A stretch of DNA of 52,085 bases, from positions 5,525 to 57,609 of the IMG/VR virus record IMGVR_UViG_3300030331_004718; one strand, given 5' to 3'. Under the pieces are notes generated by a model. That model ran no database searches and was not told where the DNA came from. It saw only the letters and a program-made list of their open reading frames with translations. This document shows, one piece after another, positions 1,631 to 22,494 of this stretch. The position numbers and the translations under genes are program-made. The stretch is from a virus. Each line of letters begins with the position of its first letter. Within the stretch, counting starts at the first letter, position 1.

Positions 1631-1641
1631 ATCAGTTTTTA

Positions 1642-2383: not shown

Positions 2384-2839
2384 TTAAATTATTTTTTGCA
2401 ATTGTGACATATTCCAGTCGCTTACAATTCCGCATATTTTAATGTTTGCAAAGTTTTCAATTATTTCAGCGTGTGAGTCGCTTCTTGCTATAACCTTTAA
2501 CTTGTCGTTTCGTAAAATATTCATAGCAGTAGAAAAATACACCGGATTTTCCAACCAGTCTAAATTCCATAGATATAAATATCTATCTGATTTGTTGGGC
2601 AGCCTTAAGCTTGATTCAGCTTCTTCTAAAGTTGTAGAGATTAAAACTCCATTATATGATATTAGAAAACTAGCTAATTTACATCCAAACAGAGGCTGTA
2701 TTGGAGGTATTGCATGTCTGTTGCAAAATACACCCACTGACACGTCTGTATCATTTATAGCTTTATTAAATTCTTTAATTAAATAAAATGTATTTTGTGA
2801 CATTGATAAATCATTAACAAGTGCTGCTATTTTTTTCAT
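2384..2839 (-). CDS. Unknown protein in glycosylation island
   Basis: 151 residues, not recognised with certainty. Strand-helix alternation and phrases such as YLYLWNLDWLENP and KVIARSDSHAEIIENF resemble one Rossmann-like half of a GT-B glycosyltransferase, but no EX7E or DXD motif is visible. The start shares one base with the upstream stop (TAATG) and has AAGGAAAG inside the upstream gene, so it is clearly expressed with its neighbours. It may be a stand-alone half domain or an accessory protein. Confidence 0.6.
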   Translation of the reverse strand: MKKIAALVNDLSMSQNTFYLIKEFNKAINDTDVSVGVFCNRHAIPPIQPLFGCKLASFLISYNGVLISTTLEEAESSLRLPNKSDRYLYLWNLDWLENPVYFSTAMNILRNDKLKVIARSDSHAEIIENFANIKICGIVSDWNMSQLQKII

Positions 2840-6414: not shown

Positions 6415-7387
6415 AACCCTTCTCCTTTTTAAATCTATAGTACCAGCTTACAGTTTCCTTTAGTCCGTCATATAATTTTGTTTGTGCTTGGAAGTTTAAA
6501 ACTTTTGCAGCTCTGCTGACATCCAAACATCGTCTCGGCTGGCCATCAGGGAAGTCGCCATTGTAAACAATCTTTCCTTCGTATCCCATAATTTCAATCA
6601 ACATGTTTGCAAGTTCTTTTATTTTAATTTCACTACATGTTCCAATGTTTATAGGATGAGGCGTTGTGTCTACTTCCAATGATTTAATAATCGCATCAGC
6701 ACAATCATCAACATATAGAAATTCTCTACTAACATTTCCACTGCCCCATAGTTCAATGGTATTTTCGTTGTTTTGAATGGCTTTATCTATTTTTAAAATA
6801 AGTGCAGGAATAACATGACTGCTGCTTGGATTAAAATTGTCATTTGGTCCATACATATTGACAGGAATTAAGTTGGTAGATTCTAGGCCATATTGATTTT
6901 TGTATGCAATGAGCATTTCCATCAATGTTTTTTTTGCGATACCGTAGGGTGCGTTTGTTTCCTCTGGGTAGCCGTTCCATATATCTTCTTCTTTGAATGG
7001 AACTGTAGTAAACTTAGGATAGGCACACACGGTTCCCACCATAATGAATTTTTTTAAATTGCCATACCTTCTTGCGGTTTCAATAAGATTCATACCCATG
7101 GCTAGATTATCATATAAAAATTTTCCAGGCTGTTCTCTATTGATGCCAATGCCGCCACACGCTGCTGCCAGATGAATAACATAGTCTGGCTGGTATTGAG
7201 ACATGGCGTAATCTACATATTTTTGTTTTGTTAAATCCCAGTACTTTTTACCACCAAGGGGAATTACTTTATACTTTTTCCCGTTTGTGTCTAACCATGC
7301 GTGGGGTTTTGTGGTTAATTTATTTGTTACCGCTTTTCCTAAAAAACCAGAAGATCCGGTAATCAAAACTTTAGGTTGGTTAGCCAT
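6386..7387 (-). CDS. fcl: GDP-L-fucose synthase-type NAD(P)-dependent epimerase/reductase
   Basis: 333 residues, close to the usual length of about 320. VLITGSSGFLG (7-17) is the GxxGxxG cofactor loop; HLAAACGGIGIN is typical of GDP-L-fucose synthase (Fcl/WcaG); the catalytic triad is seen as the Ser/Thr of VGTVCAYPK and the YxxxK of YGIAKK. The family converts GDP-4-keto-6-deoxy-D-mannose to GDP-L-fucose or a related GDP-deoxysugar. GDP-mannose dehydratase is not in the window. Two HxRxGD-type (fucosyltransferase-like) enzymes are encoded at 45812-47488. HldD-type heptose epimerase is a less likely alternative. Confidence 0.88.
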   Translation of the reverse strand: MANQPKVLITGSSGFLGKAVTNKLTTKPHAWLDTNGKKYKVIPLGGKKYWDLTKQKYVDYAMSQYQPDYVIHLAAACGGIGINREQPGKFLYDNLAMGMNLIETARRYGNLKKFIMVGTVCAYPKFTTVPFKEEDIWNGYPEETNAPYGIAKKTLMEMLIAYKNQYGLESTNLIPVNMYGPNDNFNPSSSHVIPALILKIDKAIQNNENTIELWGSGNVSREFLYVDDCADAIIKSLEVDTTPHPINIGTCSEIKIKELANMLIEIMGYEGKIVYNGDFPDGQPRRCLDVSRAAKVLNFQAQTKLYDGLKETVSWYYRFKKEKGFEDLFDSIQ

Positions 7388-8420
7388 TCAAAGTTTCCTT
7401 ATATTGTGTTATAATATTTTTAGACAAATTTTCATATCCAAACTCTTGTAATATTTGTGCGGCTCTATGAAAACCCGTGTGGTTTTCCATTACAACTTTT
7501 TTGCCTTTTTCGCTACACCCGTAAGTTTCTTCAGGATTTTTCAAGTAGTGTTCTATCAAATCTTTAAAATGCTTGGGATTATTTGCTATAGGAACTGAAT
7601 CGCCAAATATACTTTTGTACCCTTCTACATTATCACTAATGCAAAAGCCGCCAGCATATAGAATCTTAAAAATTCTTTCGTTAACATCAAATCCATATTC
7701 ATGTGCATGAGGTTCACTTAGGTTTGGACATATTTTAGCAGAAACAAATAAATCTTTTACTTTGTTGTCGTCGATAATGCCGCAATATTGATTTACGCCC
7801 CATGGTTGGTTTCCGAATATCTTAACTTTATATTTACTTCTAGGGTGCAGTAATGGAAATAGATATGGTTCTAGAATTTGGCCTTTATAGGGCCAGAATC
7901 CTCCAATAAATCCAATATCGCATGATAATGCTGGATCAAACTCAGCACCAGAATATTCCAAAGTATCAGCACACATCATTAAAGATATAGGTTTAATACC
8001 TATAGAGTTAAAGTTATTGTGAGTAACGTCAATAGCTTCGGGTGTATAATGAATATGCACAAATTCTGGCTGTCCTGTTTGCATCTTTAACTCTTCTAAC
8101 ATCTCACGCTCTTTCACGCTACATGTTAAAATATTAAATCTGTTGTGATCAATCTCCGATGTTTGATCCCCCCAATCACCTGCACGCAGCCCTACCTTTA
8201 AGTGAGGACGTTCTTTGATACAACTGATAGTTGATTGATCTAGATTATATGCTTGACCCATAAATATATCTGGTTCAAATTTATCAAATACATCAAAAGC
8301 CGATGTATTTTTTATATCCCAGATTGCCATATCTACTCCGCATGACAGAAAAGCATGTGCCCACGCCATACGTTGATAATGATGGGCATGTAGACCATCA
8401 CCAGCTATTAAAATTTTCAT
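7380..8420 (-). CDS. CgeB-like glycosyltransferase (GT-B)
   Basis: 346 residues. KILIAGDGLHAHHYQRM is a GT-B N-terminal strand; DIGFIGGFWPYKG begins the C-terminal domain; HEYGFDVNERIFKILYAGG followed by CISDN is the donor-site motif of the CgeB / glycosyl transferase group 1 (PF13524-like) family. Overlaps the flanking genes by 4 and 8 bases, with AGGGA upstream of ATG. Soluble; donor unknown. Confidence 0.82.
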   Translation of the reverse strand: MKILIAGDGLHAHHYQRMAWAHAFLSCGVDMAIWDIKNTSAFDVFDKFEPDIFMGQAYNLDQSTISCIKERPHLKVGLRAGDWGDQTSEIDHNRFNILTCSVKEREMLEELKMQTGQPEFVHIHYTPEAIDVTHNNFNSIGIKPISLMMCADTLEYSGAEFDPALSCDIGFIGGFWPYKGQILEPYLFPLLHPRSKYKVKIFGNQPWGVNQYCGIIDDNKVKDLFVSAKICPNLSEPHAHEYGFDVNERIFKILYAGGFCISDNVEGYKSIFGDSVPIANNPKHFKDLIEHYLKNPEETYGCSEKGKKVVMENHTGFHRAAQILQEFGYENLSKNIITQYKETLNG

Positions 8421-9124
8421 TCAATGTCCCTTATTCTATCTATTTCTTTTATTTTCATTCCATTGGGCTCATAACATTGAAAAACGCCCCCCTTTTCAAC
8501 AACCTCGTTAATTATTTCAAAAGATAATTTTTTCTTTTCTTTGTTTTCAAATTTATTAAATATACTGTTTAATATTTTATATTCTTGTCCTGTAAAGAAT
8601 GCTATCTGTGCCCATTTGTTTGGCAATCCATAGGACATAATTGATAATACATTATTAACTGAGGTTATTCCTATTTCGTTTTCTTTCATCATCTTAGTTG
8701 CATCTGTTATGATAAAAGATTTTGAGTAGTCAACATCTAAACATTTATTGTTAAAAAGTATATCACCATGAATAAACATAAAATTTTTACAACAGGAATT
8801 ATTAAATGCCAACCTTAAACTTTCTGAAGAATTAGTTTGGTCATGTAGTTGATTTTCTATTACACGAGTTTTATTTTTAATTTTTTTAATTATTTTATTT
8901 GCATGACACCCGACGACTGTTATAATTTCAGGTTTATTAAAAAAGTTTTTGATAGTATCTATTTGATGATAAATTAAATTTTTGTTTTTTATCTTTAGTA
9001 GGCTCCTTGGTTCGTATGATTTAATTTTACTTCCGCTTCCTGCTGCCAATATTGCGATAGCAATTCCATTTTTTTCATTATTGCTAATGTGTTTCTTTTT
9101 TATATTGGTAACAAATCTAGTCAT
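8417..9124 (-). CDS. Sugar-phosphate nucleotidyltransferase (NTP_transf-like)
   Basis: 235 residues. AIAILAAGSGSKI then PRSLLKI is the G-rich NTP-binding loop and PK(S)LL motif of GlmU/RfbA-type nucleotidyltransferases; FMFIHGDILF holds the metal-binding Asp (GD). It probably makes an NDP-activated sugar or sugar-alcohol for the neighbouring transferases. Lys in place of the usual Arg of GxGTRM is noted. Overlaps both neighbours by 1-4 bases. Very AT-rich and lysine-rich compared with its neighbours. Confidence 0.75.
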   Translation of the reverse strand: MTRFVTNIKKKHISNNEKNGIAIAILAAGSGSKIKSYEPRSLLKIKNKNLIYHQIDTIKNFFNKPEIITVVGCHANKIIKKIKNKTRVIENQLHDQTNSSESLRLAFNNSCCKNFMFIHGDILFNNKCLDVDYSKSFIITDATKMMKENEIGITSVNNVLSIMSYGLPNKWAQIAFFTGQEYKILNSIFNKFENKEKKKLSFEIINEVVEKGGVFQCYEPNGMKIKEIDRIRDIE

Positions 9125-9861
9125 TATTTATCCATTATAATCTTTGCATTTTGTTGAAAGATATCTGCTGTCATTTTCATAGATTGATTGTTGCCGTGTT
9201 GATTGGCAATCGCTAGACACTCAGGTATATGAGTTATCACACACACTTTGGATAATCTTAGCCATAGGTCATAGTCTTCGGTGCATCCTATAAAACCCTC
9301 ACTTGCTGGCCCATGTAAACGACTATCAAAAAATTCTCCATTTGGTAATCTGACAAGTTCTAAATATTGTTTTTTGATTAATGCGTTGCTATGAACCATA
9401 CATCTACGCTGCAATCCAATTTTATCATATGATGGTTTAAACTCGCGTTTGATATAATTTGGAAAAATATTTTCATAATCTGCGTAAGCCACTCCCACTT
9501 CTTCATGTTCGGTAAGCTTCTCAACTAGCCTTTCAACTTTGGTAGGATGATAAGCATCGTCAGCATCGAGTATTCCAATGATATCGGCCCAGTCTAGACA
9601 CATTTCAATAGCTGTATTTCGAGCCACGCTGGCTCCTGAATTTTCTATTCTTTTTTTCCATAGAAAATCTGATTTTGCTGTTTTTGGCTCACGGGTTTTT
9701 TGTTGACATATTTTTTCCCATGAGTCGTCAGTTGATCCATCATCTACAACATACAAACGGAGTGGTCCAACGTATGTTTGCTGCCTAATACTTTCTATCG
9801 CGGAAATAATATATTTGCTATAATTATAATTCGCACAAATAATTGCTACTTTAGGAAGCAT
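9124..9861 (-). CDS. GT2-family glycosyltransferase
   Basis: About 245 residues from ATG 9861, chosen because GGGAGGAA lies just upstream; the longer in-frame reading to 9942 is inside the previous gene. KVAIICANYNYSKYI, LYVVDDGSTDDSW and IIGILDADDAYHP (DXD) are textbook GT2 motifs; CTEDYDLWLRLS is the ED acceptor-base motif. Inverting transfer onto an unknown acceptor, cytoplasmic. Confidence 0.92.
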   Translation of the reverse strand: MLPKVAIICANYNYSKYIISAIESIRQQTYVGPLRLYVVDDGSTDDSWEKICQQKTREPKTAKSDFLWKKRIENSGASVARNTAIEMCLDWADIIGILDADDAYHPTKVERLVEKLTEHEEVGVAYADYENIFPNYIKREFKPSYDKIGLQRRCMVHSNALIKKQYLELVRLPNGEFFDSRLHGPASEGFIGCTEDYDLWLRLSKVCVITHIPECLAIANQHGNNQSMKMTADIFQQNAKIIMDK

Positions 9862-10675
9862 TGAATTCCTCCCATGAAAGTAAATTATTAGTATTACTTC
9901 TTTTGGCGGCATCGCGAACCTTTTCCAAAAATCCTCGACCATCCACTATTTCATCTTGGAAAACTTTAACCTTATTGCCATTTAAAAACTTAAATAAATA
10001 GGCTGGAAATATCATTCCGTTGTATCCATCGTGCGGTTCTACTAATACAACTTGACGCATATCTATATTTATAATTTTATGTATAGTGCCAGCTATATCT
10101 TTTGTAAGAGTATCTCCGCTGGTTAAAGTCATAATCCAACTGTTTTGAGCGTGATGAAATGCCGCATCAATATTTTCTTGAACTATTTTGGGAGCTTGTG
10201 ATAGTTGCACAATGTGATACATTGTTTCTACTTCGTCTTTATCCTCGTCTCCAAAGAATTTAATAAATAATTCCCAAGTCTCTTCATTAAATTCAACCCT
10301 GTCTGTAATTACTACAACATAATTCGGGACATGGTTAGAATTTTCTGTTATTGATTTTAGTGTTGTTTCTAATTTGTTAATTGCATCGTTTTCTTGAGTA
10401 TTTAACCTGATAAAGTATCCCATTCTGGGATAGATTTCTTCTAATACTGCGTTTTCTGGATCTAGAGATTCTTCAAAATCTAACCATTCAAGCCATTCCT
10501 TGGGCCTATGAACATTGCAAACTCTATCTAAAAGATAGCTTGTCTTACCTTCTTCGTTTTTTTGCTCTTCATAAATACCGAGTTTTTCTGGACGGTTTAG
10601 AGTACATCCAGTTTGTTTATTATCTGAATATTTGATAAATATACATTCATCACATGATGTTCTTATCTTATTCAT
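9851..10675 (-). CDS. GT-A-like protein with N-terminal cysteine cluster
   Basis: 274 residues. The N-terminus has CDEC, a further Cys about ten residues later and another near residue 53, compatible with metal binding. From about residue 90 the pattern YVVVITDRVEF and WIMTLTSGDTL resembles a GT2-like fold, but the DXD is reduced to SGD, so catalysis is doubtful. Starts with an ATGA overlap with the upstream gene. Could be a divergent glycosyltransferase or a non-catalytic partner of the GT2 enzyme encoded next. Confidence 0.6.
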   Translation of the reverse strand: MNKIRTSCDECIFIKYSDNKQTGCTLNRPEKLGIYEEQKNEEGKTSYLLDRVCNVHRPKEWLEWLDFEESLDPENAVLEEIYPRMGYFIRLNTQENDAINKLETTLKSITENSNHVPNYVVVITDRVEFNEETWELFIKFFGDEDKDEVETMYHIVQLSQAPKIVQENIDAAFHHAQNSWIMTLTSGDTLTKDIAGTIHKIINIDMRQVVLVEPHDGYNGMIFPAYLFKFLNGNKVKVFQDEIVDGRGFLEKVRDAAKRSNTNNLLSWEEFNAS

Positions 10676-11097
10676 TTCAACCTTTCTAGGGTTATTGTGA
10701 AAATCGTTTCATCAAAACCTTTAGATATTGTAGACAACTCATATGGATTTAGCATAGACTCGATAGTTTCACTGGTAAGAATACTTTTAATGCCAGTTCC
10801 CATGTCGTTAAATATTGCATGGTTTAATCTTTCAATATCTACTGATTCTTTGAAAATATGTCTGGATATTAAACTAAAGTCTTTTTCAGAAATTATTAAT
10901 TCACATCTTAATCTCATTTTCTTTACTATTAATGCAATGACTTTAGGAAGATCAGAATAATTAAAATTACATAAAAAGTTTTCACATATAATAGATGTAG
11001 CCTCATTATCTCCAACACTCCTAGAAAAAGACAATATATCTGAAAAACTTTTATATCCTTTTAAAGATTTATTATTTGATGTTAAATGAACTAGCAT
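10672..11097 (-). CDS. Unknown protein, possibly a decayed class I methyltransferase
   Basis: 141 residues. The opening VHLTSNNKSLKGYKSFSDI, an acidic middle and KMRLRCELIISEKDF resemble the layout of small Methyltransf_11-type phage proteins, but the SAM-binding glycine loop is missing. GGAG seven bases before ATG and a 7-nt overlap with the GT4 gene upstream show it is expressed as part of the island. Function unknown. Confidence 0.5.
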   Translation of the reverse strand: MLVHLTSNNKSLKGYKSFSDILSFSRSVGDNEATSIICENFLCNFNYSDLPKVIALIVKKMRLRCELIISEKDFSLISRHIFKESVDIERLNHAIFNDMGTGIKSILTSETIESMLNPYELSTISKGFDETIFTITLERLK

Positions 11098-12134
11098 CTA
11101 AATTCTCCAATAGTTTTATAAAGTAGCTTATTCCAATTTTCTATAAACTTAGGCAGATTGTATTTATCTTCTATAGTTTTTCTTGCTGCTTGTCCCATTT
11201 TGCTTGCCAATACGGGATCATTGAGAAGTTTAATACAATATCCTTCTAATTCTTCTGGATCATTAGACATAAATCCATTGACTCCATGTTCCACAACTTC
11301 TGGTATCATACATGTTTTAGTTGAAACAATTGGGCATCCGCAGGACATAGCTTCCAATATTACTGTAGGAATTGGAGAATGTAAAGATGTATTTAAAAAC
11401 AATCTGGCTTGTTGGTAATAATATCTTAGTTCGTCTTTATCCTCTGCTGGCCTAGAGAATGCAGCATTGCTACTTTCACCCTTGACTAAAGTCGGCAAAT
11501 TTTTAGTTACCTCTCTCCACAAATCAAACCCACAGCACCAATTTCTGTCGGGAAAATAGTTGACTACATTTAAGCAAAAAGGGGGGTAGTCTATTTTATT
11601 TTTAGTTTCGGACTTTGAAGGAGTCTCTGGGTTCCAAAATTCAGTGTCAACACCATGAGGTATCACGCTAGAATTATATTTGGAAAATTTCCATTGACTC
11701 TGATTAAAATCTGAAATAAAACAATTAGCATCAACAGGAATCCGGTGATAATTCTTTATTTCTTTTTCAACATTAAAATTAATATCTGGTAAGACGTGGC
11801 AATGTCTTAAAACAGGAACTGCTATATTTTTCAGTCCCCCCTTGGTCCCAGATAATAGATCATGAGCCACTTGGATTCTGTCACAGGTTGTATGACTTAA
11901 AACAATGTCGATGTCTACCCAGTTTGGCAGTCTGTTGACAATATGATAATTGTCTGGAATTGGAGCATATGTTTGATTCCATTGTTTCCCGTAGTTGAAA
12001 GAATAAAAATTATGTCCCGTTCGACATAAATTTTCTTCATACCTTTCGTGTGTGGCAAAGGTAAGAATATTTAGCTTGTCTCCCGGCTGTTTCATAAGGG
12101 ATCTAACCGACCTTATGTTTGCTCTAGCTGTCAT
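11091..12134 (-). CDS. GT4-family glycosyltransferase
   Basis: 347 residues, GT-B fold. SVIPHGVDTEFWNPE is the phosphate-binding loop found in GT4; PTVILEAMSCGCPIVSTKT gives the C-terminal EX7E-like donor site, followed by PEVVEHGVNGFM. Retaining transfer from a nucleotide sugar. The N-terminal domain is somewhat short. ATGA overlap with the next GT4 gene upstream; RBS GGAG. Confidence 0.9.
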   Translation of the reverse strand: MTARANIRSVRSLMKQPGDKLNILTFATHERYEENLCRTGHNFYSFNYGKQWNQTYAPIPDNYHIVNRLPNWVDIDIVLSHTTCDRIQVAHDLLSGTKGGLKNIAVPVLRHCHVLPDINFNVEKEIKNYHRIPVDANCFISDFNQSQWKFSKYNSSVIPHGVDTEFWNPETPSKSETKNKIDYPPFCLNVVNYFPDRNWCCGFDLWREVTKNLPTLVKGESSNAAFSRPAEDKDELRYYYQQARLFLNTSLHSPIPTVILEAMSCGCPIVSTKTCMIPEVVEHGVNGFMSNDPEELEGYCIKLLNDPVLASKMGQAARKTIEDKYNLPKFIENWNKLLYKTIGEFRC

Positions 12135-13216
12135 TTAAGAATCTCCTTGATTATTTTACCTACTGATTCATGGCTGTATTCTAGAGATTTTTCAATACAT
12201 GTCTTTTTATACTTGTCTTTATTTCTTTGATCTGATAAATGCGAATACATATATCTCATGGTTTCACTAAGACTTTGCACATCTATATCCTGCCAATTTG
12301 CGTCAGCAGTATCTAGGTCTGGCAATGTTTCTATCGCACCAAAACATGGAACTGTATAAGATCGCACCTTCTCTCCAACGGTGTGTTCCATGCCAATATA
12401 CATTGTATGAATGCTAGGTATACCCATTGCCATAGCTTCTAAAGAGGGTATACAAAACGCTTCACCTCTGCTTGGCATAACAAAACAATCGACTTGATTT
12501 AGTACGGAAATATAGTCCTTTTGCTCCATTATTCCAGAAATTATTACTTCTTCCTTGTATGTCTTTCGGATCTTTAGTCCATTTTTTACATGTCTACAAT
12601 ACGCTTGTACTTGTTCTAAATCCTTCTTTGACGTTTTAATAAAAAGATTCACAGGTTCTTTTGGATCAAATGTTATGTGAAAAGCTTGTATTAATGCCTT
12701 TATATTTTTTCTCTCTATAAACTCTCCCACAAATCCAAAGGAAAAATGATTTTGTAAAACATCAATTTTTTGCCCGTGTTTGTTTTCTTTATTTTTATAA
12801 TCTGATAAGTTTAAAGAATGGGGAACTACCTTGATGGGTTTTTTGACATCGCTTGCCTGTGTTTGTTGTTTTGCGATTAAACTAGGAACCCAGATTTCGT
12901 CCATTAGATTGCAGTTATGCTGCCATCCTGTAGATTTGAAATCAGAAGTTTCGCAAGCAAAAAAGCCAATATTTTTATAGTTACCATTATACCAATAGTT
13001 AGAAGGTAACGTATGCTGAACCACTACATCACAATTATCTTTGGATTGTAATTCTAATTGTTTGATTCTATCTGGATATTCTTTGTCCTTAGATTCATAT
13101 GTAACAGCTCTAGGTACAACTTCAATACCAGCAGCATCCATTGCTAGTATGTTATTTATTGCGGCATTTCCCCAGCCAGTTCCATCGCGGTAATGACCTA
13201 TGTATAAAACTTTCAT
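12131..13216 (-). CDS. GT4-family glycosyltransferase
   Basis: 361 residues. VLYIGHYRDGTGWGNAA is the glycine-rich N-terminal loop; FGFVGEFIERKNIKALIQAF starts the C-terminal Rossmann domain; PSRGEAFCIPSLEAMAMGIP is a complete EX7E motif. Second of three consecutive GT4 genes (11091-14880), which differ clearly from one another, so they probably form successive linkages and are not recent duplicates. Confidence 0.92.
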   Translation of the reverse strand: MKVLYIGHYRDGTGWGNAAINNILAMDAAGIEVVPRAVTYESKDKEYPDRIKQLELQSKDNCDVVVQHTLPSNYWYNGNYKNIGFFACETSDFKSTGWQHNCNLMDEIWVPSLIAKQQTQASDVKKPIKVVPHSLNLSDYKNKENKHGQKIDVLQNHFSFGFVGEFIERKNIKALIQAFHITFDPKEPVNLFIKTSKKDLEQVQAYCRHVKNGLKIRKTYKEEVIISGIMEQKDYISVLNQVDCFVMPSRGEAFCIPSLEAMAMGIPSIHTMYIGMEHTVGEKVRSYTVPCFGAIETLPDLDTADANWQDIDVQSLSETMRYMYSHLSDQRNKDKYKKTCIEKSLEYSHESVGKIIKEILK

Positions 13217-13236: not shown

Positions 13237-14880
13237 TTACACTGTTTTGTTTTGGATGACTTTAGCTCTGTACTTTTCCCAATGATTCCATTGTTCTCTT
13301 AAATGTACTAGTTCTTTTACTGCCATTTCCATGTTAAAACGTTGGTATTTATCAACTTTAGGAGTGTGCGACTCATGAAAATAATAGTCATCTTCAGAGT
13401 TGTGAACTCTATATCCAAAGGTAATATCTTTAATTACCTTACTCCAGAAATAGCCACCAATCCATTCCGATTTATGAAGTATATTGTTGAAAAAATAATT
13501 AACTTGATCTTTTAGATCTATAATGTCATTAGGCATATCAGTAGCGGGTTGTTTAATCTGTATTGGAGACAACCAAGTTTCTGAATGATCTTTCATTGGT
13601 ATTGTTTTGAAGTGATCAATCCAAGTTTGTGCCGTTTTGTCCCAATCATAATTTTGTCTAGCCCGTTTTGCAATTTCTATTCCTTTTGGTTTAAGTGCAG
13701 TTGGATGCTCCATAATTGTTTTTAGCATATTAATCATTGTCTCGTTATCCGGTACAGCTCGATAACATCCTGTTTCGCATTCCATACTGAGTGCTAGGGG
13801 ATCTATCGGCCAAGCTCCTGTGTTTTTAACCACAGATTCCATGGCGGAATAATTCATAGCTATAAATGGAACACCGCAACAAGCGGCCTCTAGTTGAGGC
13901 ATTCCAAACCCCTCACTATTAGCATACTGTATATACAAATCAAAAGTATTATATATTTTAGCTAGTTGTTCTGTAGTAATTGAATTGTCAATACCAATTA
14001 AACGTTTGGAAAATTTACTACAATTTGGACAATAACATGCAGTATCTTGGAAAAAGTCTACACTAAGAGTGTCGCAATTATTACAATAATATGAAAACAA
14101 AACTCTATTATTTAGACCAAACTCATCTAATAATGCGGGCGTTTCCCACCCAATATCTGGATAGTAATGATGGCAATAGAGAAATACGTTTGGGTTTTTA
14201 GTTTTATCTAAGAAACCTCTGAACATTTTGAACAGATCTGGATACAACTTTCTACGTTGATTACGCATTACAGTTCCAATGATGATAGAATCTTTATCAA
14301 TACCCATAGACTCTTTATGAGCATTTTTATCTTGCACCCAATCAAACTCTTTACTAGCAGCGGGCGGTGCAACGTCAATAAAATTAATTTTGTCAGATTG
14401 CTCTAACATCACATCTCTGCCAAATTCAGAATATGAAAAGACAGAATCAGCATTTGCAAATGTACTGAGCCACTGAGGGTTTTGTGGAGTTGCGTCAACT
14501 GTAGGCATTATTGACCAGTGAAAAAAATCTCTGAAAGCACTTCTTTCTTGATATTCAAACATCCACCAATCGCGTATATCCATCACGATATCTGGTTTAA
14601 AATCTAATAAAACAGAATTAAAAGTGTTTTCGCCAAATATCATACTTGGATTTTGTACATATGTTTCAAAATGAGGATCGCTTCCTAATGGCCTATTTGG
14701 ATATACTTTCCAAGGACATTTACTAATGTTGGGATCTTCTTCATCTACATAACATGCAATTTCTGCAACTTCAAATTCTGGCACCTTATGAAGCCTAGAT
14801 AAAACTTCTTTACCGTAGACACCATAACCCGTCCCTTTCCACGAAGCGTCATTTACCCAAAGAATTCTTTTTTTTCTCAT
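13237..14880 (-). CDS. GT4-family glycosyltransferase with inserted zinc ribbon
   Basis: 547 residues, longer than the usual 350-400. ILWVNDASWKGTGYG is the N-terminal loop, SEGFGMPQLEAACCGVP the EX7E donor site. In the C-terminal Rossmann domain there is an insert with YCNNC, then CYCPNC about 16 residues later: a four-Cys zinc ribbon. About 140 residues after the GT fold are of unknown function. First glycosylation gene after ssb, joined to it by ATGA. Confidence 0.9.
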   Translation of the reverse strand: MRKKRILWVNDASWKGTGYGVYGKEVLSRLHKVPEFEVAEIACYVDEEDPNISKCPWKVYPNRPLGSDPHFETYVQNPSMIFGENTFNSVLLDFKPDIVMDIRDWWMFEYQERSAFRDFFHWSIMPTVDATPQNPQWLSTFANADSVFSYSEFGRDVMLEQSDKINFIDVAPPAASKEFDWVQDKNAHKESMGIDKDSIIIGTVMRNQRRKLYPDLFKMFRGFLDKTKNPNVFLYCHHYYPDIGWETPALLDEFGLNNRVLFSYYCNNCDTLSVDFFQDTACYCPNCSKFSKRLIGIDNSITTEQLAKIYNTFDLYIQYANSEGFGMPQLEAACCGVPFIAMNYSAMESVVKNTGAWPIDPLALSMECETGCYRAVPDNETMINMLKTIMEHPTALKPKGIEIAKRARQNYDWDKTAQTWIDHFKTIPMKDHSETWLSPIQIKQPATDMPNDIIDLKDQVNYFFNNILHKSEWIGGYFWSKVIKDITFGYRVHNSEDDYYFHESHTPKVDKYQRFNMEMAVKELVHLREQWNHWEKYRAKVIQNKTV

Positions 14881-15200
14881 GATTTATGTAATATCTTAAA
14901 ATTAGTTACCCTAAAATATGTTTCTAATATCTCATCTTTTATACCATCTAACGTAAACGAAGAGTTTCTAGCTATAGCCTCTACCGCCATTAAAGATCCG
15001 CAATCTGCATATTTATGGATTGCTAACGCCGCAGAATCCCAAGCTTCACAATTCAAATATGTAACAGTTCTAATTTTTTCACCATTGTAGTCCTTTCTAA
15101 ATTCCTCTACTTCCAACTCAAAAAGTACAACGGGCACCTCTTCTTTGTGATGTATTTCTGGATTATAGGTAACTTTACCTAGAAAATGACATTTATTCAC
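14877..15200 (-). CDS. ssb: Single-stranded DNA-binding protein (GTG start)
   Basis: 107 residues. CHFLGKVTYNPEI, PVVLFELEVEEFRKD and TYLNCEAWDSAALAIHKYADCGSLMAVEA match the OB fold of bacterial SSB: first strand with G.V, then the F.L and C.AW strands and the helix before the last strand. No acidic C-terminal tail, so protein partners may differ from host SSB. The start codon is GTG, supported by GAAGGAA at good spacing. Lies directly after the polymerase C-terminal half. Confidence 0.82.
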   Translation of the reverse strand: MNKCHFLGKVTYNPEIHHKEEVPVVLFELEVEEFRKDYNGEKIRTVTYLNCEAWDSAALAIHKYADCGSLMAVEAIARNSSFTLDGIKDEILETYFRVTNFKILHKS

Positions 15201-15212: not shown

Positions 15213-16781
15213 TCAAATTTGTGACACTTGATTTACAATAAAAGAAGTTTTTTTTCTTTTGTCTACTTCTCCCATCAATAATACCGTATTATTATCTAGT
15301 AATAGATCTTTATACTTGTCGTAAGGTTCGGGAAAGATGACAACATCTTCTAGAGAGCCACTACCATCTTCTACTGTAAGAAAGGCCATTTCTTGGCCTG
15401 GATTTTTACCACGTTTGGTTTTTACAATTTTAACACGCACAATCTCTATAGCTAGGTTTGCTTTCTTTGTTATCACTCCACTGGACACATCTTGACACAA
15501 ATTTGTTACCATATTTAAATCTAATCCGTCAACTTTATTGCAGGTCAGGCTGCAACTCATATATTTCTCTTCATCTGCTGCGATTGTTACAGCCTTATCT
15601 CCAAGATCGTAAAATGGACTGTCTAGTGATTCTTTGATATCTTGTACTGTGGGCATTCTTCTAGAGTTAATTTTAATGGTGTTTGTCATGTGCGATATAG
15701 CTTCTGACAAACTTGATGCATAAACAGAAGGATCGCCGCTTTCATGATTTTCTGCAATGGCCTTTTGTTCCCTAGCCGATAGTTGCTTCCAGCTATCAAA
15801 TTCATATAGCATTTTTTGACGACTTTCGCGGTTATTGGCTCCATTAAAAGCACCAACTGAAATTAACGCTATCGTAGATCTTTTATTCAAATTTAATTTG
15901 TATATAATTTTTAACAAACAATCCAGCCAAGTATATTCACTTACATTGCCTAAAGTTTCTAGTTTTTCACACTCTTTGCCCCCTACGTGTTTGATATGTT
16001 GTAGCCCATAGTATACAATATCTTTTTCTGTATTTCTGGTGAAGTTAGTGTAAAGATGTTGTAGCCTGGGGGGCAGGACATCAATATTGGCACGTTTGGC
16101 ATCCATAATCAATTGCTTCTTCTCAACATCTGGGTCTGGTTTTCTATCAGCACGATTCAAATAAGTATTGTAAAACTTCTTTAATCTATGTGTTTTACAG
16201 TAGGCGGACCAATATGCATTGATAGCATATGAAACCGCATGAGACTTATTGAAAGCATAACGATTTGATTTTTCAATCCATGAGAAAATTTCTTCTGCGA
16301 TTTCCTTGGTGACAGTGCCCTGTCTCTCTGCACCCTCTAGGAAAGACTTCTTTACTTTCTCCATAAGATCAGCTTTCTTTTTACCGATAGCCTTACGCAG
16401 TGCGTCTGCGTCCTTCAAATCGAAACCAGCAAGTTGTTGTGCAATCATCATAGATTGTTCTTGATAAACAAGTACACCAAATGTTTCTTTAAGAATTGGC
16501 TCAAGGGAATCGTGGAGGTATTCTAGTGGAGAGTCTGGCTTTTTTGCTTTTCTATCAGCATAAACCTGGGTCATGCTTTTTCCGTTAGCATCTCTAGCCA
16601 ACAAAGTACCAGGACGAATAAGACTTACCAGAGCCGCTAATTCTTTAATGTTTCTGGGCTGAATTTCTTTTGCCCAATGTTTGCCTAGATTAGACTCTAA
16701 CTGAAAAACACCTTTAGTATTTCCATCGCAAATGAGATCCCAAACTTCAGGATCGTCAAAATTATTAATATCAAAACTCAT
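15213..16781 (-). CDS. dnaE: DNA polymerase III alpha subunit, C-terminal half
   Basis: 522 residues. Begins DDPEVWDLICDGNTKGVFQLES, the start of the finger region in DnaE, then GVLVYQEQSMMIAQ, ALRKAIGKKK and RYAFNKSHAVSYA, all standard DnaE motifs. The end (EMAFLTVEDGSGSLEDVVIFP, then LLMGEV) is the OB domain. The cyanobacterial split-intein position corresponds to Y|CFNKSH; here it is intact as YAFNKSH. No intein C-terminal sequence precedes the first motif. It must pair with the N-terminal half at 19008-20564. ATGA overlap with the upstream methyltransferase and AAGG RBS. Confidence 0.95.
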   Translation of the reverse strand: MSFDINNFDDPEVWDLICDGNTKGVFQLESNLGKHWAKEIQPRNIKELAALVSLIRPGTLLARDANGKSMTQVYADRKAKKPDSPLEYLHDSLEPILKETFGVLVYQEQSMMIAQQLAGFDLKDADALRKAIGKKKADLMEKVKKSFLEGAERQGTVTKEIAEEIFSWIEKSNRYAFNKSHAVSYAINAYWSAYCKTHRLKKFYNTYLNRADRKPDPDVEKKQLIMDAKRANIDVLPPRLQHLYTNFTRNTEKDIVYYGLQHIKHVGGKECEKLETLGNVSEYTWLDCLLKIIYKLNLNKRSTIALISVGAFNGANNRESRQKMLYEFDSWKQLSAREQKAIAENHESGDPSVYASSLSEAISHMTNTIKINSRRMPTVQDIKESLDSPFYDLGDKAVTIAADEEKYMSCSLTCNKVDGLDLNMVTNLCQDVSSGVITKKANLAIEIVRVKIVKTKRGKNPGQEMAFLTVEDGSGSLEDVVIFPEPYDKYKDLLLDNNTVLLMGEVDKRKKTSFIVNQVSQI

Positions 16782-17383
16782 TGAAGTACCTTTGTTTCTT
16801 CAAATATGCCCCAACAACCTTTCCCATGCACTCTCATTAGTAAATTGCTTTCTTTGCAAAAATCATTTACAGCGTTCCTGACACTTTTTGTCCATATATC
16901 ATGTCCGAATAATCCAGACGGACCTTTTAACTTAGGAAGCCAAGCTGTAAGATCAGCAAGCACATTATTATAATCATGAGAAGCGTCTATAAAAACAAAG
17001 TCTAATGATTTATCTTCAAAATCTTTTGCAGCTTCTATAGATTCTTTTCTAATAGCCGTATAGTAGTCTTCAACAGGTTTCATGTTTTTTATGAATCTAT
17101 TGTAAAGCCAGTCTTTTTCTTTTATTCTAGGGTCATAATGAGAAGAGTCTTTATTTAAATGTTCCTGACTTCCACTCCAGGTATCTACGCAATAGAAGTC
17201 AATCTCCTTTTGTGAGTTGGCAATTTCTACTGCCATAAATGAAGAACTGGCACCTTTCCAAGAACCAACTTCAACAAACTTAGCACCAATTGATGGAGCT
17301 TTCATAACTTGATTTTGATATAGGTGGTGAAAATCAAACCATCCTTGAATCTTGTTATAAAAATGACCTATATTATTTGACAT
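16778..17383 (-). CDS. Class I SAM methyltransferase (Methyltransf_24-like)
   Basis: About 201 residues from ATG 17383, which has GTGGAGAAA upstream; the longer reading to 17413 lies inside the exonuclease gene. FVEVGSWKGASSSFMA is motif I, FYCVDTWSG motif II, LDFVFIDASHDY motif IV, and LFGHDIW a typical later motif of this family, often acting on sugars or antibiotics. It lies between two DNA replication genes, linked by short overlaps, and could modify a glycan, a nucleotide or a protein. Confidence 0.85.
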   Translation of the reverse strand: MSNNIGHFYNKIQGWFDFHHLYQNQVMKAPSIGAKFVEVGSWKGASSSFMAVEIANSQKEIDFYCVDTWSGSQEHLNKDSSHYDPRIKEKDWLYNRFIKNMKPVEDYYTAIRKESIEAAKDFEDKSLDFVFIDASHDYNNVLADLTAWLPKLKGPSGLFGHDIWTKSVRNAVNDFCKESNLLMRVHGKGCWGIFEETKVLQ

Positions 17384-18059
17384 ATATTTCTCCACTGGCA
17401 AAAGCTTTTTCAAATTTGATCTTCTTAGACAAGTTCCTTTGCATCTTCAAAAACTTAATCAAAATGTTAGCAGTATCTTTGACATCCTGCAAGGCATCGT
17501 GGGCATTGTCTTTAGGCATACCAAAGTAGTCACGAAGATAATCCATACTATAACCTTTTACGTCAGCATTATTTTCAAACCAACAATAAATATGCTGCAT
17601 AACATCCATAGTAAAAACAGGATTAAAAATTTTTTGTTTACCTTTCTTCTCATCAACAGGTCCAAAAGCTTGGCACAATCTTTCAACAATGGGCATGTCA
17701 TAGCCATTAATGTTATAGCCAGCTGCGATTGGTGCTGTAAAAGATGTACCCTTCCAATTATATTTGTCGCAAAATTGAGCAAACTTTTTCCATACAGTTT
17801 TAGGCATTGGACCTTTCGCAATTTCTGCCCTGGTTTTTCTAGTTACTTCCAAAGCTTTGTCTTCTACAGGGTCAAATCCAGCAGCGATTGCTTTCTCATC
17901 ATCTACAATACATCGCATTTTACTTTCAAAAATTCCTCCTGGTTGCAGCTCCAATTTACGTGCGTGGATAGCAACGGCAGCAATCTGGGTTGGCTGACAC
18001 TTGTAAGGATTCTGACCTGTGGTCTCAAAGTCGAATACGATGATATCACGATAATTCAT
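17373..18059 (-). CDS. DnaQ-like DEDDh 3'-5' exonuclease
   Basis: 228 residues. IVFDFETTGQN (Asp-Glu, Exo I), NINGYDMPIVERL (Asp, Exo II) and NAHDALQDVKDT (His and Asp, Exo III) complete the DEDDh active site. The family proofreads for Pol III or degrades single strands. Its place between the two polymerase halves argues for a proofreading subunit, the more so since the PHP domain of the polymerase has lost a metal ligand. Confidence 0.92.
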   Translation of the reverse strand: MNYRDIIVFDFETTGQNPYKCQPTQIAAVAIHARKLELQPGGIFESKMRCIVDDEKAIAAGFDPVEDKALEVTRKTRAEIAKGPMPKTVWKKFAQFCDKYNWKGTSFTAPIAAGYNINGYDMPIVERLCQAFGPVDEKKGKQKIFNPVFTMDVMQHIYCWFENNADVKGYSMDYLRDYFGMPKDNAHDALQDVKDTANILIKFLKMQRNLSKKIKFEKAFASGEIYVK

Positions 18060-18147
18060 TGTATGATTTTTCCTCTACTATACTAGATTTGTTTAATTTA
18101 TTAATCTCTCTTTTTATTTGTGCAACTGGTATTTTTATAAGTTTCAT
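18046..18147 (-). CDS. Small ORF, 33 residues, between GT2 and dnaQ-like genes
   Basis: Its ATG overlaps the stop of the upstream glycosyltransferase as ATGA, the commonest gene junction in this genome, and its TGA lies 14 bases into the exonuclease gene, so it bridges an otherwise untranslated gap. The peptide is basic and helical (VAQIKREINKLNK). No recognised domain and no clear SD of its own. It could be a real microprotein or a translational coupler. Confidence 0.4.
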   Translation of the reverse strand: MKLIKIPVAQIKREINKLNKSSIVEEKSYNELS

Positions 18148-18794
18148 AGATAAACCATAAGTTTTTGAGGTGTATAGTATAAGCGATGTTCTGGATGACG
18201 TACAATATCCTGGCAAAAAATACCATCTTCTCCTAGTGATATTGTTTCATCATAAGTAATTTCTTTATTAATCAACATATTTGTTCTACATGATATTGGA
18301 CCATGTGCAACATCTTCATCTTTTTTTGTTCTAATGTTGGTACATCCTACATCAATTCTTTCAACTCTTTCAATTGATTCATATACAAAATTTAATTCTT
18401 CCCATCCCTCGAATGATTCTGGCGTATGGTAGTTATGAATTAAAGCAGAAACTTTGCTATATTTAAAAACTTTTTTTACATATTCGCATTTTTGTGGGTG
18501 AATTGCATCATCTACATCACAAAAACAAACCACATCGCTTGTGCTAATATGTCCTCCTGTATTTCTTGCCCACCCTGGTAGTAGTCGTTTTTTAGAATAA
18601 TTATAAACAATATAATTGTTTTTTTTGCATTTATTAAATAATTGATCAATAGCGTTAGTATCTGCAAGACCGCTACATATAACCACTACCTCTTCAGGTT
18701 TTACGGTTTGAGATTTTATATATTTAATACATTGATCTAAGTAATGAACATCTTTATCGCAGCATGTTACACAAAAGGTTACACTTATATTCAT
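18144..18794 (-). CDS. GT2-family glycosyltransferase within the replication operon
   Basis: 216 residues. VTFCVTCCDKDVHYLDQCI and PEEVVVICSG are GT2 strands; GWARNTGGHIS and VVCFCDVDDAIHP (DXD) are clear GT2 motifs; ISLGEDGIFCQDI holds the ED base motif. No membrane segments. Joined by ATGA to the small gene upstream. Unusual setting: between the polymerase N-terminal half and the DnaQ-like exonuclease. Confidence 0.88.
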   Translation of the reverse strand: MNISVTFCVTCCDKDVHYLDQCIKYIKSQTVKPEEVVVICSGLADTNAIDQLFNKCKKNNYIVYNYSKKRLLPGWARNTGGHISTSDVVCFCDVDDAIHPQKCEYVKKVFKYSKVSALIHNYHTPESFEGWEELNFVYESIERVERIDVGCTNIRTKKDEDVAHGPISCRTNMLINKEITYDETISLGEDGIFCQDIVRHPEHRLYYTPQKLMVYL

Positions 18795-19015
18795 GAAACT
18801 CTTCTCTTTTGCTTTAGTTCTATAAATTTCTTTACAGCATCATCAATGTTGTAATAAAGAGAATGAAAATTTAATCTGTCAGAACAAACTTGATATTTAG
18901 CCCTCGGTACAAAATTATGCATAAAGTTTTCTAAATTACACAAAGATACTCCATTGGATTCTACGGCTGAACCATCAAAGACAACAGCACGATATATTTC
19001 AAAGTAATTACTCAT
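18791..19015 (-). CDS. Unknown small protein after polymerase N-terminal half
   Basis: 74 residues from ATG 19015; a GTG at 19021 is also in frame. It overlaps the polymerase N-terminal half by 8 bases and the GT2 gene by 4, so it is cotranslated with both. YFEIYRAVVFDGSAVESNGVS looks like a beta-hairpin, followed by a C-terminal basic helix (FIELKQKRR). No family recognised. Confidence 0.6.
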   Translation of the reverse strand: MSNYFEIYRAVVFDGSAVESNGVSLCNLENFMHNFVPRAKYQVCSDRLNFHSLYYNIDDAVKKFIELKQKRRVS

Positions 19016-20564
19016 CTTCACAAATCTCCATTATTTTAGAAAGTAGGTCAATTCCAAGAACGTCAAACTTTACATGTCCTTGAGTTTCTAATGCATTCAT
19101 TTCAAAGGCTACAACTGGATCTCCAGATTTGTCAACAGTCATGGGACAAACATTTGATAAAACGTGTTGAGATATTACAACTCCGGCAGGGTGTTTTCCC
19201 TGAGACTTATTTGTTCCTTCGATATTTATAGCTTGCTCAAATAGATTAGCCAAAGGCCCGTCAAGTTTATCTTCATTGTAGAAGACCCAGTTCTTCAATT
19301 TTTCAGGTTCATTTTCAAGTGTCCACCTAATAACAGATTTGTCATCCATCAATTCAAGCTGGTCGGAAATCTTGGCTTCATCAGGTATACTATCTGTTAT
19401 CTCATTCATTTCAGCAAAAGACACAGCTTCGTTTATCCTTAATACTTCTTTTACAGCAGAACGACCCTGTAGTCTACCGAATGTAATCATTTGTGCTACG
19501 TTTTGTTCGCCATATTTTTGTTTCATATAATCAATAACTTCATCCCTATGTTCAGCGGGAACGTCCATATCAATATCTGGAATTGCAATATTCCCGTCTG
19601 TGTTTCTACCTTCGTTATAGAATCTTTCAAAGATTAAATCATATTCTATCGGGTCAACCTCTGTGATATCTAGCAAATAAGAAACAAGACATCCGGCAGC
19701 AGATCCGCGACCAGGACCAGCGAGCCAACCTTGTGATTTTACCCAACTTATAATATCTTGTACAATTAAAAAGTAGCCAGAAAGTTGAGCCTTAAAAATA
19801 ACCTTAAGTTCATGTTTTACTCTTTCTGCATAAATATTCCTGTTAGTGGCATTTGATACCTTGTCACTAGGTATTAGTTTTGTTTTCCATCCTTCTCGAC
19901 AAAGTTCTGTTAGATATTCATCTTCATCAAATCCCTCGGGGCAATCAAAGGTGGGAAATGAGGGCTGATCTGCAAGATCATATTCTTCGCAGCGATCTAC
20001 AATTTTAGAAACGTCTGATTCTCTACCTGATGTTTGCAAGTACCACTGATCATCGCCGTTAAAAAACTGTTCATAGTCATGTTCAACGTTTTTGATTTTC
20101 TTTAGAGTGGTTTTGAGCTTACCACAAAGCATGATTCTATGGCACTCAGCATCACTCTGATCAACATAATAGATTGCCTGCGGCTCATAGTCAAGCTGTA
20201 TATGATTACCCTTAAAGAGATTTGCAAATCCGTTTACATTTGATGTCACGCATAGAACATTACCATTGGCGGCAACTTCTTTTAGTACATTAAGATTTTG
20301 ATTTGAAACATATCTAACAAGGTCGAACCAGCCGTTTTTGTTTTTTGCATATAAAATATACCCATCAAATTGACATCCGATGATTGGTTTAATTCCATGT
20401 TTTTTGCAGTCTTGTTGGAATTCTACAGCACCAGATACGGTTCCAAAGTCCGCAATACCACAGGCCGAGTAACCATATTCAGAGCAACGTTTTGCCAACT
20501 TATCCGTTTTACAAAACCCATGCTGTAGACTGAAGTGAGTTTTACAATTAATGGGATTCCACAT
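19008..20564 (-). CDS. dnaE: DNA polymerase III alpha subunit, N-terminal half (PHP + catalytic palm)
   Basis: 518 residues from the ATG at 20564 (GAGGAA upstream; the TTG at 20576 is less likely). PHP domain: THFSLQHGF and GIADFGTVSGAVEFQ, where the usual DHG is DFG, so one metal-binding His is lost. Palm: GWLAGPGRGSAAGCLVSYLL, then IPDIDMDVPAEHRD with two catalytic Asp. HPAGVVIS and VKFDVLGIDLLSKI carry the third Asp region. It ends a few residues after that motif, exactly where the C-terminal half begins. All catalytic aspartates are in this half. Driven by the promoter at 20598-20626. Confidence 0.95.
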   Translation of the reverse strand: MWNPINCKTHFSLQHGFCKTDKLAKRCSEYGYSACGIADFGTVSGAVEFQQDCKKHGIKPIIGCQFDGYILYAKNKNGWFDLVRYVSNQNLNVLKEVAANGNVLCVTSNVNGFANLFKGNHIQLDYEPQAIYYVDQSDAECHRIMLCGKLKTTLKKIKNVEHDYEQFFNGDDQWYLQTSGRESDVSKIVDRCEEYDLADQPSFPTFDCPEGFDEDEYLTELCREGWKTKLIPSDKVSNATNRNIYAERVKHELKVIFKAQLSGYFLIVQDIISWVKSQGWLAGPGRGSAAGCLVSYLLDITEVDPIEYDLIFERFYNEGRNTDGNIAIPDIDMDVPAEHRDEVIDYMKQKYGEQNVAQMITFGRLQGRSAVKEVLRINEAVSFAEMNEITDSIPDEAKISDQLELMDDKSVIRWTLENEPEKLKNWVFYNEDKLDGPLANLFEQAINIEGTNKSQGKHPAGVVISQHVLSNVCPMTVDKSGDPVVAFEMNALETQGHVKFDVLGIDLLSKIMEICEDE

Positions 20565-20636: not shown

Positions 20637-21485
20637 CTAAAAACTCACATGTTTTACCATAGGTTTATCTTTGTGTTCTTTTTTTAATTTGTTGTATTTT
20701 AATAACTTTAATTTAAATGTTTCTTGGTATACTTGTTGTATGTATTGGATGTAATAATCAGAACAAAGTCTCCCAGCACCATTCATAGAGTTGTCGTTCA
20801 TAGAAAAAAAACTACCAACATTTTTAGATTTGTATTCCAGAGAGTCAGATGGATCGACTGTAGACAAAAGCATTGTATTATAAATCTCTCTGTGTTTTAT
20901 ATCGTAGGTTCTTTGTTCTGCACCCTGATGAACATGATATGATTTTATTAAGTGACATGGGTTAATAACTTTAAAATTATTTACAATAGCTAAAAAGCAA
21001 ATATGATTATCGCAACATTGTGTACCTTGATAAAAGAAAGATGTGTTTATCATTTCTTCTGGTATTTTTTTTCTGAATGCCCACACATCTTGAGAAAAAG
21101 CTTCGTGCCCTTGTATTTCAGTTTCACTATCGTAAGTGTTCCATCTGGTCAAACAAACAAAATAATCTTCTTTAATGCCTTCAAGTTGGGCTAGGGTATT
21201 GTCAAAGTAAATATCATTATTTGCAATTATGTATATTGTATTTTCACAAAAATTGTTGTTGCAATATGTAAAATAGTCTGCATAGGTCATTCTTTTCTTT
21301 GTTGGAATGCGTGTTATTTTTTGATCTTTACAAAGACTCACATCTTTATCGGCAAAAACGATTATGCTATCAATATATTCGCACTCTATGTTTTTTTGCA
21401 ATACTTTAGAAAATTCTTCGTTTCTTTGTGAAAACTCAGATTCGTAAAGTTCAACAAGTAGTGTTATACTATCCCGGTGCCTCAT
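20637..21485 (-). CDS. Putative GT-A glycosyltransferase
   Basis: About 282 residues from ATG 21485; the TTG at 21494 is also open. TIYIIANNDIYFD is a strand ending in an acidic NND that looks like a DXD metal site, followed by YFVCLTRWNTYD and HEAFSQDVWAFRK, typical of uncharacterised GT-A proteins of large phages and giant viruses. The C-terminus is lysine-rich. It lies between a RecB-like nuclease and the polymerase promoter and ends the upstream operon. Confidence 0.62.
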   Translation of the reverse strand: MRHRDSITLLVELYESEFSQRNEEFSKVLQKNIECEYIDSIIVFADKDVSLCKDQKITRIPTKKRMTYADYFTYCNNNFCENTIYIIANNDIYFDNTLAQLEGIKEDYFVCLTRWNTYDSETEIQGHEAFSQDVWAFRKKIPEEMINTSFFYQGTQCCDNHICFLAIVNNFKVINPCHLIKSYHVHQGAEQRTYDIKHREIYNTMLLSTVDPSDSLEYKSKNVGSFFSMNDNSMNGAGRLCSDYYIQYIQQVYQETFKLKLLKYNKLKKEHKDKPMVKHVSF

Positions 21486-22494
21486 AATGTCCAATATTAA
21501 ATCCTTCCTTAGTGCATTTTTCTACAGTATCATCATAACCAAATGCCTTAAGATGTTCTTCTACATGTTCGCACATTGAGATGTTTGTTCCGGGCCAATT
21601 CTTTTTATAAAAATCACATAATTTTGTACATTTAAAACTAGTCCTATTCCTAGAGCATGGTTGCGGAAAATCATTGCGTTGAATTTGTTTAAATCTTTGT
21701 TCTAGCATTCCTAGAAATTTTTCTTGATCATTTTGATCGAAACACATACTGAATGGGCCACCATCCCTAATAAAAAATATAGACATAATTGCCTGATCAT
21801 AGTCAGGGTACAGTTTAGAAATTGCATAGTGATATAAAAGCAACTGAGGATCTTCAATTAACTTTTCATATGTTTTTTCTTCTCCAGTAGCCCAGTTTTT
21901 ACGTTGTCCAGTTTTCCAATCAATAACTTCAATAATTCCATCGTCAACTTCAGTAACAAGGTCAATTGTTCCCTTGATCGCTAATTGACACTCCGTTATT
22001 TTACCGTCTGGCGTCTTGTATTTAAATTTTGCCCAGTCACGATCAATCGGAATATCAAACTGAGGCTCCGCTTCTACGATGTTTCTTTTTCTGGGGTCGA
22101 ATTGTCCATTATGATATTCTAGTGCTTGATCAGTTAGCTTTCTACAAAACTTTTTATCAGACCCCGTATATTTATGTATGCAGTTGCTTGTATAATGATC
22201 ATAACTTCGATCTAATATTTTAGTAACAAGGGTTTTTGTAAATAGGTTTTTAGCTGTAAAATTCACCTTACCAATTGCATCATCATTTATAAATAAACTT
22301 TTTTTATTATTATTATTATCTTGAAGTTGTTTTTTACAAGAGGCTAATATCTCCATAACCTTATGAACAATCGTTCCTAGTTGTGCTTTTTTCCCAGATG
22401 TTGTTTGATGTCCTAATACATAGGTCATAAAAAATTGCATTTGGCAATAATCATAGTTATTATAAGATGAACTTCGGATATATGTTACTATCAA
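21469..22494 (-). CDS. RecB/Cas4-like PD-(D/E)XK exonuclease (TTG start)
   Basis: 341 residues. YIRSSSYNNYDYCQMQFF is the N-terminal Cys-bearing motif, GTIVHKVME the conserved GxxxH, GTIDLV plus IIEVIDWKTGQ the Asp and Glu/Lys of the nuclease core, and LLLYHYAI the QxxxY-like motif. Four cysteines in the last 100 residues (C-x-S-x8-C-x3-C...C) with the N-terminal Cys could hold an Fe-S cluster as in AddB/Cas4. The TTG start overlaps the upstream stop as TTGA with AAAGG upstream. Probably processes DNA ends for RecA-dependent recombination. Confidence 0.85.
   Translation of the reverse strand: MIVTYIRSSSYNNYDYCQMQFFMTYVLGHQTTSGKKAQLGTIVHKVMEILASCKKQLQDNNNNKKSLFINDDAIGKVNFTAKNLFTKTLVTKILDRSYDHYTSNCIHKYTGSDKKFCRKLTDQALEYHNGQFDPRKRNIVEAEPQFDIPIDRDWAKFKYKTPDGKITECQLAIKGTIDLVTEVDDGIIEVIDWKTGQRKNWATGEEKTYEKLIEDPQLLLYHYAISKLYPDYDQAIMSIFFIRDGGPFSMCFDQNDQEKFLGMLEQRFKQIQRNDFPQPCSRNRTSFKCTKLCDFYKKNWPGTNISMCEHVEEHLKAFGYDDTVEKCTKEGFNIGHYEAPG

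What the first reader, a model, noticed from the sequence alone, without database searches (positions are those of the whole stretch)
15213..20564. DNA polymerase III alpha split into two genes without an intein
The N half (PHP, palm with the PDIDMD and VKFDVLG motifs) ends just where the C half (DDPEVWDLICDGNTKGVFQLES onward) begins. About 2.2 kb with five genes lies between. No intein residues are at the break, and the classic split-intein site (Y|CFNKSH) is intact in the C half. The two parts must assemble non-covalently, with the palm and fingers made separately.
Basis: partly seen in the sequence, partly recalled or inferred. Interest (0 to 1): 0.75.

Follow-up and report, generated by a model that had tools for sequence, protein, structure and literature searches.

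The report
Phage replicase split around its proofreader
A large group of uncultured phages makes its main DNA-copying enzyme as two separate proteins, encoded on either side of the gene for its error-correcting nuclease and with no self-joining element, so the halves probably snap together like pieces of one machine.

Summary
The split is real. N half (PHP, palm, thumb) is at 20564-19008(-), C half (fingers, HhH, OB) at 16781-15213(-). Four genes lie between, not five. The break maps to E. coli DnaE ~565-590, the palm/fingers boundary. All three catalytic Asp are in the N half; the essential fingers His is in the C half, so neither should polymerise alone.

It is not an assembly error. 115 of 115 distinct split IMG/VR loci covering the junction have the same break, always with a DnaQ-like exonuclease gene between the halves. 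In the tree these phages form one clade (100) apart from unsplit DnaE, so the split is ancestral. One nested lineage (two contigs) has N and C fused in frame, with the exonuclease moved upstream: a natural re-fusion and the best evidence that the halves form one enzyme.

Both halves are under strong purifying selection and fold confidently as matching parts of Pol III alpha. Related records (53-244 kb) have no second copy; none tested has PolA or PolB.

True split inteins occur in some relatives, but elsewhere (FNK|SH, GRG|SAAG). Split replicases are known (archaeal PolB; a minimal split Pol III in jumbo phages), so this is a new variant. Assembly itself is untested.

The parts
19008..20564 (-). 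Pol III alpha N half (PHP + palm + thumb), holds PDIDMD and VKFD catalytic motifs; ATG start at 20564 (ORF opens at TTG 20576)
15213..16781 (-). Pol III alpha C half (fingers, helix-hairpin-helix, OB fold); no tau-binding C-terminal domain; contains YAFNKSH
17373..18059 (-). DnaQ-like 3'-5' exonuclease (RNase_T, phrog_192 'DNA polymerase exonuclease subunit'), the gene that always lies between the halves
18791..19021 (-). 76-aa ORF of unknown function; its probable ATG (19015-19013) overlaps the N-half stop region (19010-19008); linked to the exonuclease in close relatives, also in the re-fused lineage
18144..18794 (-). glycosyltransferase family 2, variable cargo in the gap
16778..17413 (-). 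Methyltransf_24 SAM methyltransferase, variable cargo; its stop overlaps the C-half start (ATGA)
14877..15200 (-). single-strand DNA-binding protein, conserved downstream neighbour
21469..22494 (-). PD-(D/E)XK nuclease, conserved upstream neighbour

Best explanation
This phage lineage has a two-subunit C-family replicase. The N subunit carries PHP, palm and thumb; the C subunit carries fingers, HhH and OB. They are made from one gene cluster and fold separately (inferred). They join non-covalently across the natural palm/fingers boundary to rebuild one active site, with Asp401/403/555 equivalents from the N subunit and His760 and Arg709 equivalents from the C subunit. The DnaQ-like exonuclease encoded between them probably docks on the PHP/thumb of the N subunit as the proofreader, as epsilon does in E. 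coli. The break arose once, early in the lineage, by events that left the exonuclease gene between the halves: either its insertion, or tandem duplication with complementary loss. It has persisted through deep divergence and was reversed once by an in-frame re-fusion. Shown: the break, its age and spread, conservation, selection, folds, the re-fusion, absence of inteins or introns at the break. Inferred: heterodimer formation, activity, exonuclease docking, mode of origin.
For: Same break with the exonuclease between in 115/115 distinct split loci, gap 0.66-3.0 kb, C-half start ATG in 104/115, SD-like motif before 59/115 against 17% at random sites. One clade with support 100; fused L137 nested; AU p = 0.018 against L137 lying outside the split rows. 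L137/L138 carry N+C1 as one 894-aa ORF. Catalytic D, D, K, D in 68/68 rows; fingers His181 invariant in 54/54. pN 0.10-0.21 against pS 0.72-0.86 for both halves. N and C distances correlate, r = 0.92. AlphaFold2 N pLDDT 91.5, C 90.5, best PDB matches Pol III alpha for both. No PolA, PolB or second Pol III in related records. Palm and fingers together form the active site, with D401/403/555 and H760 (PMC11253446); epsilon attaches at thumb and PHP (PMC7584608).
Against: No complex could be modelled and no relative is cultured, so binding and activity are untested. N/C distance correlation is expected from shared descent alone. The host polymerase could do most of the replication. The records are metagenomic and possibly incomplete. 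The L137 position rests on a quick tree and a modest AU p value.
Confidence: 0.85

Rival explanations
1. The two halves are joined after all, by protein trans-splicing (split intein) or RNA trans-splicing (split intron), giving one chain.
For: This polymerase family is rich in inteins: split inteins with free-standing endonucleases at FNK|SH and GRG|SAAG and cis inteins at RPG|CL in relatives. Split inteins join cyanobacterial DnaE.
Against: At this break no member has intein sequence: the N half ends 6-10 residues after the last conserved helix and the C half starts a few residues before its conserved block. No Rfam intron in the window. Each half has its own stop or start codon, often with an SD-like motif.
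Confidence: 0.05
2. Assembly or rearrangement artefact of the contig.
For: Metagenome-derived record; no reads were available.
Against: 115 distinct loci from many datasets share the break and order; near-identical contig 3300030098_005498 has it too, with one extra gene in the gap.
Confidence: 0.01
3. The halves no longer form a replicase: each has a separate job (for example an N-half nuclease or regulator and a C-half DNA-binding protein), or they are decaying while the host polymerase copies the phage.
For: PHP metal-site residues are lost in the window's branch; no sliding clamp of the beta type was found in 19 records.
Against: All polymerase catalytic residues conserved in 68/68; strong purifying selection on both halves; always in one replication cluster with exonuclease, usually SSB and nuclease; re-fused in L137.
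Confidence: 0.08
4. On origin only: the exonuclease gene arrived in the gap as cargo of a homing or other mobile element and the broken polymerase is a by-product (a 'fractured gene' whose joining element was lost).
For: Fractured genes with free-standing endonucleases occur in this very family at other sites; the gap does collect cargo genes.
Against: No endonuclease or intein remnant at this break in the members examined; the exonuclease is a conserved proofreader rather than a mobile gene. This rival fits the main explanation of function.
Confidence: 0.25

Closest known systems
Bacterial Pol III alpha DnaE with DnaQ epsilon (E. coli, Thermus, M. tuberculosis)
   Same: Same domains, same catalytic residues, same fold; DnaQ-like proofreader
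   Different: There one chain; here two chains broken at palm/fingers, and no tau-binding C-terminal domain
Minimal split Pol III alpha of group 2.2 jumbo phages (Iyer et al. 2021, PMC7824862)
   Same: Phage Pol III alpha in two standalone proteins without a reported intein
   Different: Theirs keeps only the core domains, is encoded by distant genes and accompanies a family B polymerase; here all main domains are kept, the genes are 0.7-3 kb apart around the exonuclease, and no PolB was found
Split DnaE with split intein in cyanobacteria (Caspi et al. 2003, cited in PMC3919608)
   Same: Replicative DnaE encoded by two genes
   Different: Cyanobacterial halves are spliced; the site lies in the fingers; here there is no intein and the site is about 180 residues upstream
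Split family B polymerase of Methanothermobacter (Kelman et al. 1999, cited in PMC3984812; PMC7776575)
   Same: Replicative polymerase in two polypeptides
   Different: Different polymerase family, cellular organism
Tenacibaculum phage Larrie and Bacillus phage KLEB27-3 Pol III alpha (GenBank)
   Same: Phage Pol III alpha annotated as two genes
   Different: Breaks fall at E. coli ~397 (intein-like tails by eye) and ~612-628 (HNH endonuclease gene between, intron-like by eye), not at palm/fingers
Fractured genes with split inteins and free-standing endonucleases (Dassa et al. 2009; paper not held)
   Same: Gene interrupted by other genes; such cases occur in this family at other sites
   Different: At this break there is neither intein nor endonuclease

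Membership tests
C-family DNA polymerase (DnaE type) | PHP + palm/NTPase + fingers + HhH + OB domains | tested here: met
   Pfam; PDB profile matches; Foldseek; spread over two proteins
C-family DNA polymerase (DnaE type) | Catalytic Asp401, Asp403, Asp555 and Lys553 equivalents | tested here: met
   68/68 rows
C-family DNA polymerase (DnaE type) | Single polypeptide | tested here: not met
   Two ORFs; 115 distinct loci split, one fused lineage. Usual for the family rather than defining; homology and fold are met
C-family DNA polymerase (DnaE type) | Polymerase activity | not testable with these tools
   Needs an assay
Split-intein DnaE / fractured gene | Intein N and C parts at the break | tested here: not met
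   Terminal tails too short and unlike inteins
Split-intein DnaE / fractured gene | Intron or endonuclease in the gap | tested here: not met
   Rfam none; gap genes are 76-aa ORF, GT, exonuclease, MTase
Minimal split Pol III alpha of group 2.2 jumbo phages | Lacks the other Pol III domains; accompanies a PolB | tested here: not met
   PHP, HhH and OB are present; no PF00136 match in 17 related records
DnaQ-family proofreading exonuclease (gap gene) | RNase_T fold family with DEDDh residues | tested here: met
   PF00929 E 5e-16, phrog_192; DFET and HDALQD motifs by eye

The most novel reading that the evidence does not exclude
A stable, ancestral replicase core of three separately made subunits (alpha-N, exonuclease, alpha-C), encoded in that order, in which the exonuclease may help hold the two alpha halves together or control their joining, so that polymerase activity is gated by assembly.
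Probability: 0.25. Interest if true: 0.8.

Novelty: new variant of a known kind. Interest (0 to 1): 0.6.

Why it matters
It suggests that a Pol III alpha replicase can work, and persist over long evolution, with palm and fingers on different chains. The lineage offers a natural experiment: an ancient split, one re-fusion, and several inteins inserted elsewhere in the same gene. It also gives a ready split C-family polymerase for assembly-controlled DNA synthesis. Gene finders will tend to call each half a partial polymerase, so such replicases may be under-counted in viromes.

Tried and rejected
Assembly artefact: rejected by 115 independent loci. Intein at the break: rejected. Self-splicing intron: no Rfam match in the window or nine other loci. 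Second polymerase elsewhere: none in related records for Pol III, PolA or PolB. Sliding clamp search: no beta-clamp match, which does not exclude a phage-type clamp. Cultured relative: the exonuclease search pointed to Bacteroides phage SJC03, but its polymerase lies in one open frame of 1276 aa and the exonuclease's neighbours are terminase and ligase. Host: no match in bacterial genomes. The protein at 31966-33159 has no match in the phage collection. Literature: nothing found for this exact break; Dassa 2009 and the 2011 survey of viral replicases are not held.

Full report
OBSERVATION. The window is part of a 57,609-base virus record with its main genes on the minus strand. The N half of DNA polymerase III alpha is at 20564-19008 and the C half at 16781-15213. 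Pfam finds PHP and DNA_pol3_alpha in the first, and DNA_pol3_finger, HHH_6 and an OB fold in the second. Aligned with E. coli DnaE, the N half ends near residue 575 and the C half starts near 576-591. From memory of the crystal structures, palm ends at about residue 560 and fingers begin there, so the break is at a domain boundary. The gap of 2226 bp has four genes, not five: a 76-aa ORF, a glycosyltransferase, a DnaQ-like exonuclease and a methyltransferase. Genes overlap at both edges: the probable ATG of the 76-aa ORF lies just upstream of and overlaps the N-half stop, and the methyltransferase stop overlaps the C-half ATG. This looks like one translationally coupled operon.

NOT AN ARTEFACT. 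IMG/VR scans with each half and with distant members gave about 200 related viral loci. Of the distinct loci that cover the junction, 115 are split and every one has the exonuclease gene between the halves. The median gap is 937 bp, range 663-3000. One near-identical phage (L016) has the same arrangement, with one extra gene in the gap, a methyltransferase by eye. The gap therefore also serves as a cargo site.

AGE AND RE-FUSION. In a tree of 68 non-redundant rows, all 62 members of this lineage form one clade (support 100) apart from six unsplit DnaE rows. One lineage, L137/L138 on two contigs, has N and the start of C in one 894-aa frame, with the 76-aa ORF and exonuclease upstream. It is nested in the split clade; placing it outside is rejected at AU p = 0.018. 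The simplest reading is one ancient split and one later re-fusion. A natural fusion is good evidence that separate proteins act as one unit.

FUNCTION RETAINED. The catalytic residues D, D, K, D are present in all 68 rows. Residues of the fingers block, including Arg129, Lys134 and the His of FNKSH, are invariant in the 54-row C alignment. Synonymous sites are near saturation (0.72-0.86) while non-synonymous differences are 0.10-0.21 in both halves. AlphaFold2 models are confident (N: pLDDT 91.5, pTM 0.87; C: 90.5, 0.81), and the best PDB matches of both are Pol III alpha. E. coli work places Asp401, 403 and 555 in the palm and His760 in the fingers, and says that palm and fingers together make the active site (PMC11253446). 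Neither half should therefore polymerise alone. Related records of 53-244 kb show no second Pol III alpha (record G029 has its one palm match in two pieces around a split intein), and no PolA or PolB was found in 17 records.

PROOFREADER. In E. coli epsilon attaches to alpha through the thumb and PHP domains (PMC7584608), which here are both in the N half. PHP metal-site residues are intact in early branches but lost in the window's branch (N, K, H, F in place of H, H, D, H), so the separate exonuclease is the likely proofreader there. This is inference.

INTEINS ELSEWHERE. L006, L053, L116, L139 and L137/L138 carry a true split intein at FNK|SH (FNR|SH in L137) with a free-standing endonuclease-like gene between (DUF559 match in L116). 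L185 and L188 have one at GRG|SAAG. L171 and L181 have cis inteins at RPG|CL-like sites, and L164 has a further intein-like insert at FNK|SH. These are what a joined break looks like, and the palm/fingers break has none of it. The window's own site reads YAFNKSH, uninterrupted.

KNOWN PARALLELS. Iyer et al. 2021 describe a minimal split Pol III alpha in some jumbo phages, beside a PolB and in distant genes (PMC7824862). A split PolB is known in Methanothermobacter (PMC7776575, PMC3984812). GenBank phages Larrie and KLEB27-3 have Pol III alpha in two genes, but at other positions. No report of the present break was found. The finding is thus a new variant of a known kind. The remaining gap is direct proof that the two proteins bind and polymerise.

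Noticed in passing
L006:3572-6440, L116:6170-9023, L053, L139, L137: Split inteins at FNK|SH of the polymerase, with a free-standing endonuclease-like gene (DUF559/REase-like in L116) between the halves, scattered over the tree.
   Followed up: partly
L185:6900-8500, L188:5900-7450: Split intein at GPGRG|SAAG in the N half with a further free-standing endonuclease-like gene.
   Followed up: partly
L171:8500-9500, L181:8322-9400: Full inteins with HNH-like motif at an RPG|C site in the C half.
   Followed up: no
window 19008-20564: PHP metal-site residues are lost in the window's branch but intact in early branches that also carry the exonuclease: a possible case of handing over proofreading.
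   Followed up: partly
window 18791-19021: A conserved 76-aa ORF of unknown function, tied to the exonuclease gene in the close clade and moved with it in the re-fused lineage; could be a small accessory subunit.
   Followed up: no
window 453-13216: Dense block of glycosyltransferases with nucleotide-sugar genes: cytidylyltransferase, PfkB kinase (together like a split HldE) and NAD epimerase.
   Followed up: partly
window 51007-51483: CAP (cysteine-rich secretory) domain protein with a signal-like N terminus in a phage, and a PAP2 phosphatase at 48710-49390.
   Followed up: no
L141 (Tenacibaculum phage Larrie) 3701-7281: Pol III alpha in two adjacent genes broken just before PDIDSD, with intein-like tails by eye; probably an unannotated short split intein.
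   Followed up: no
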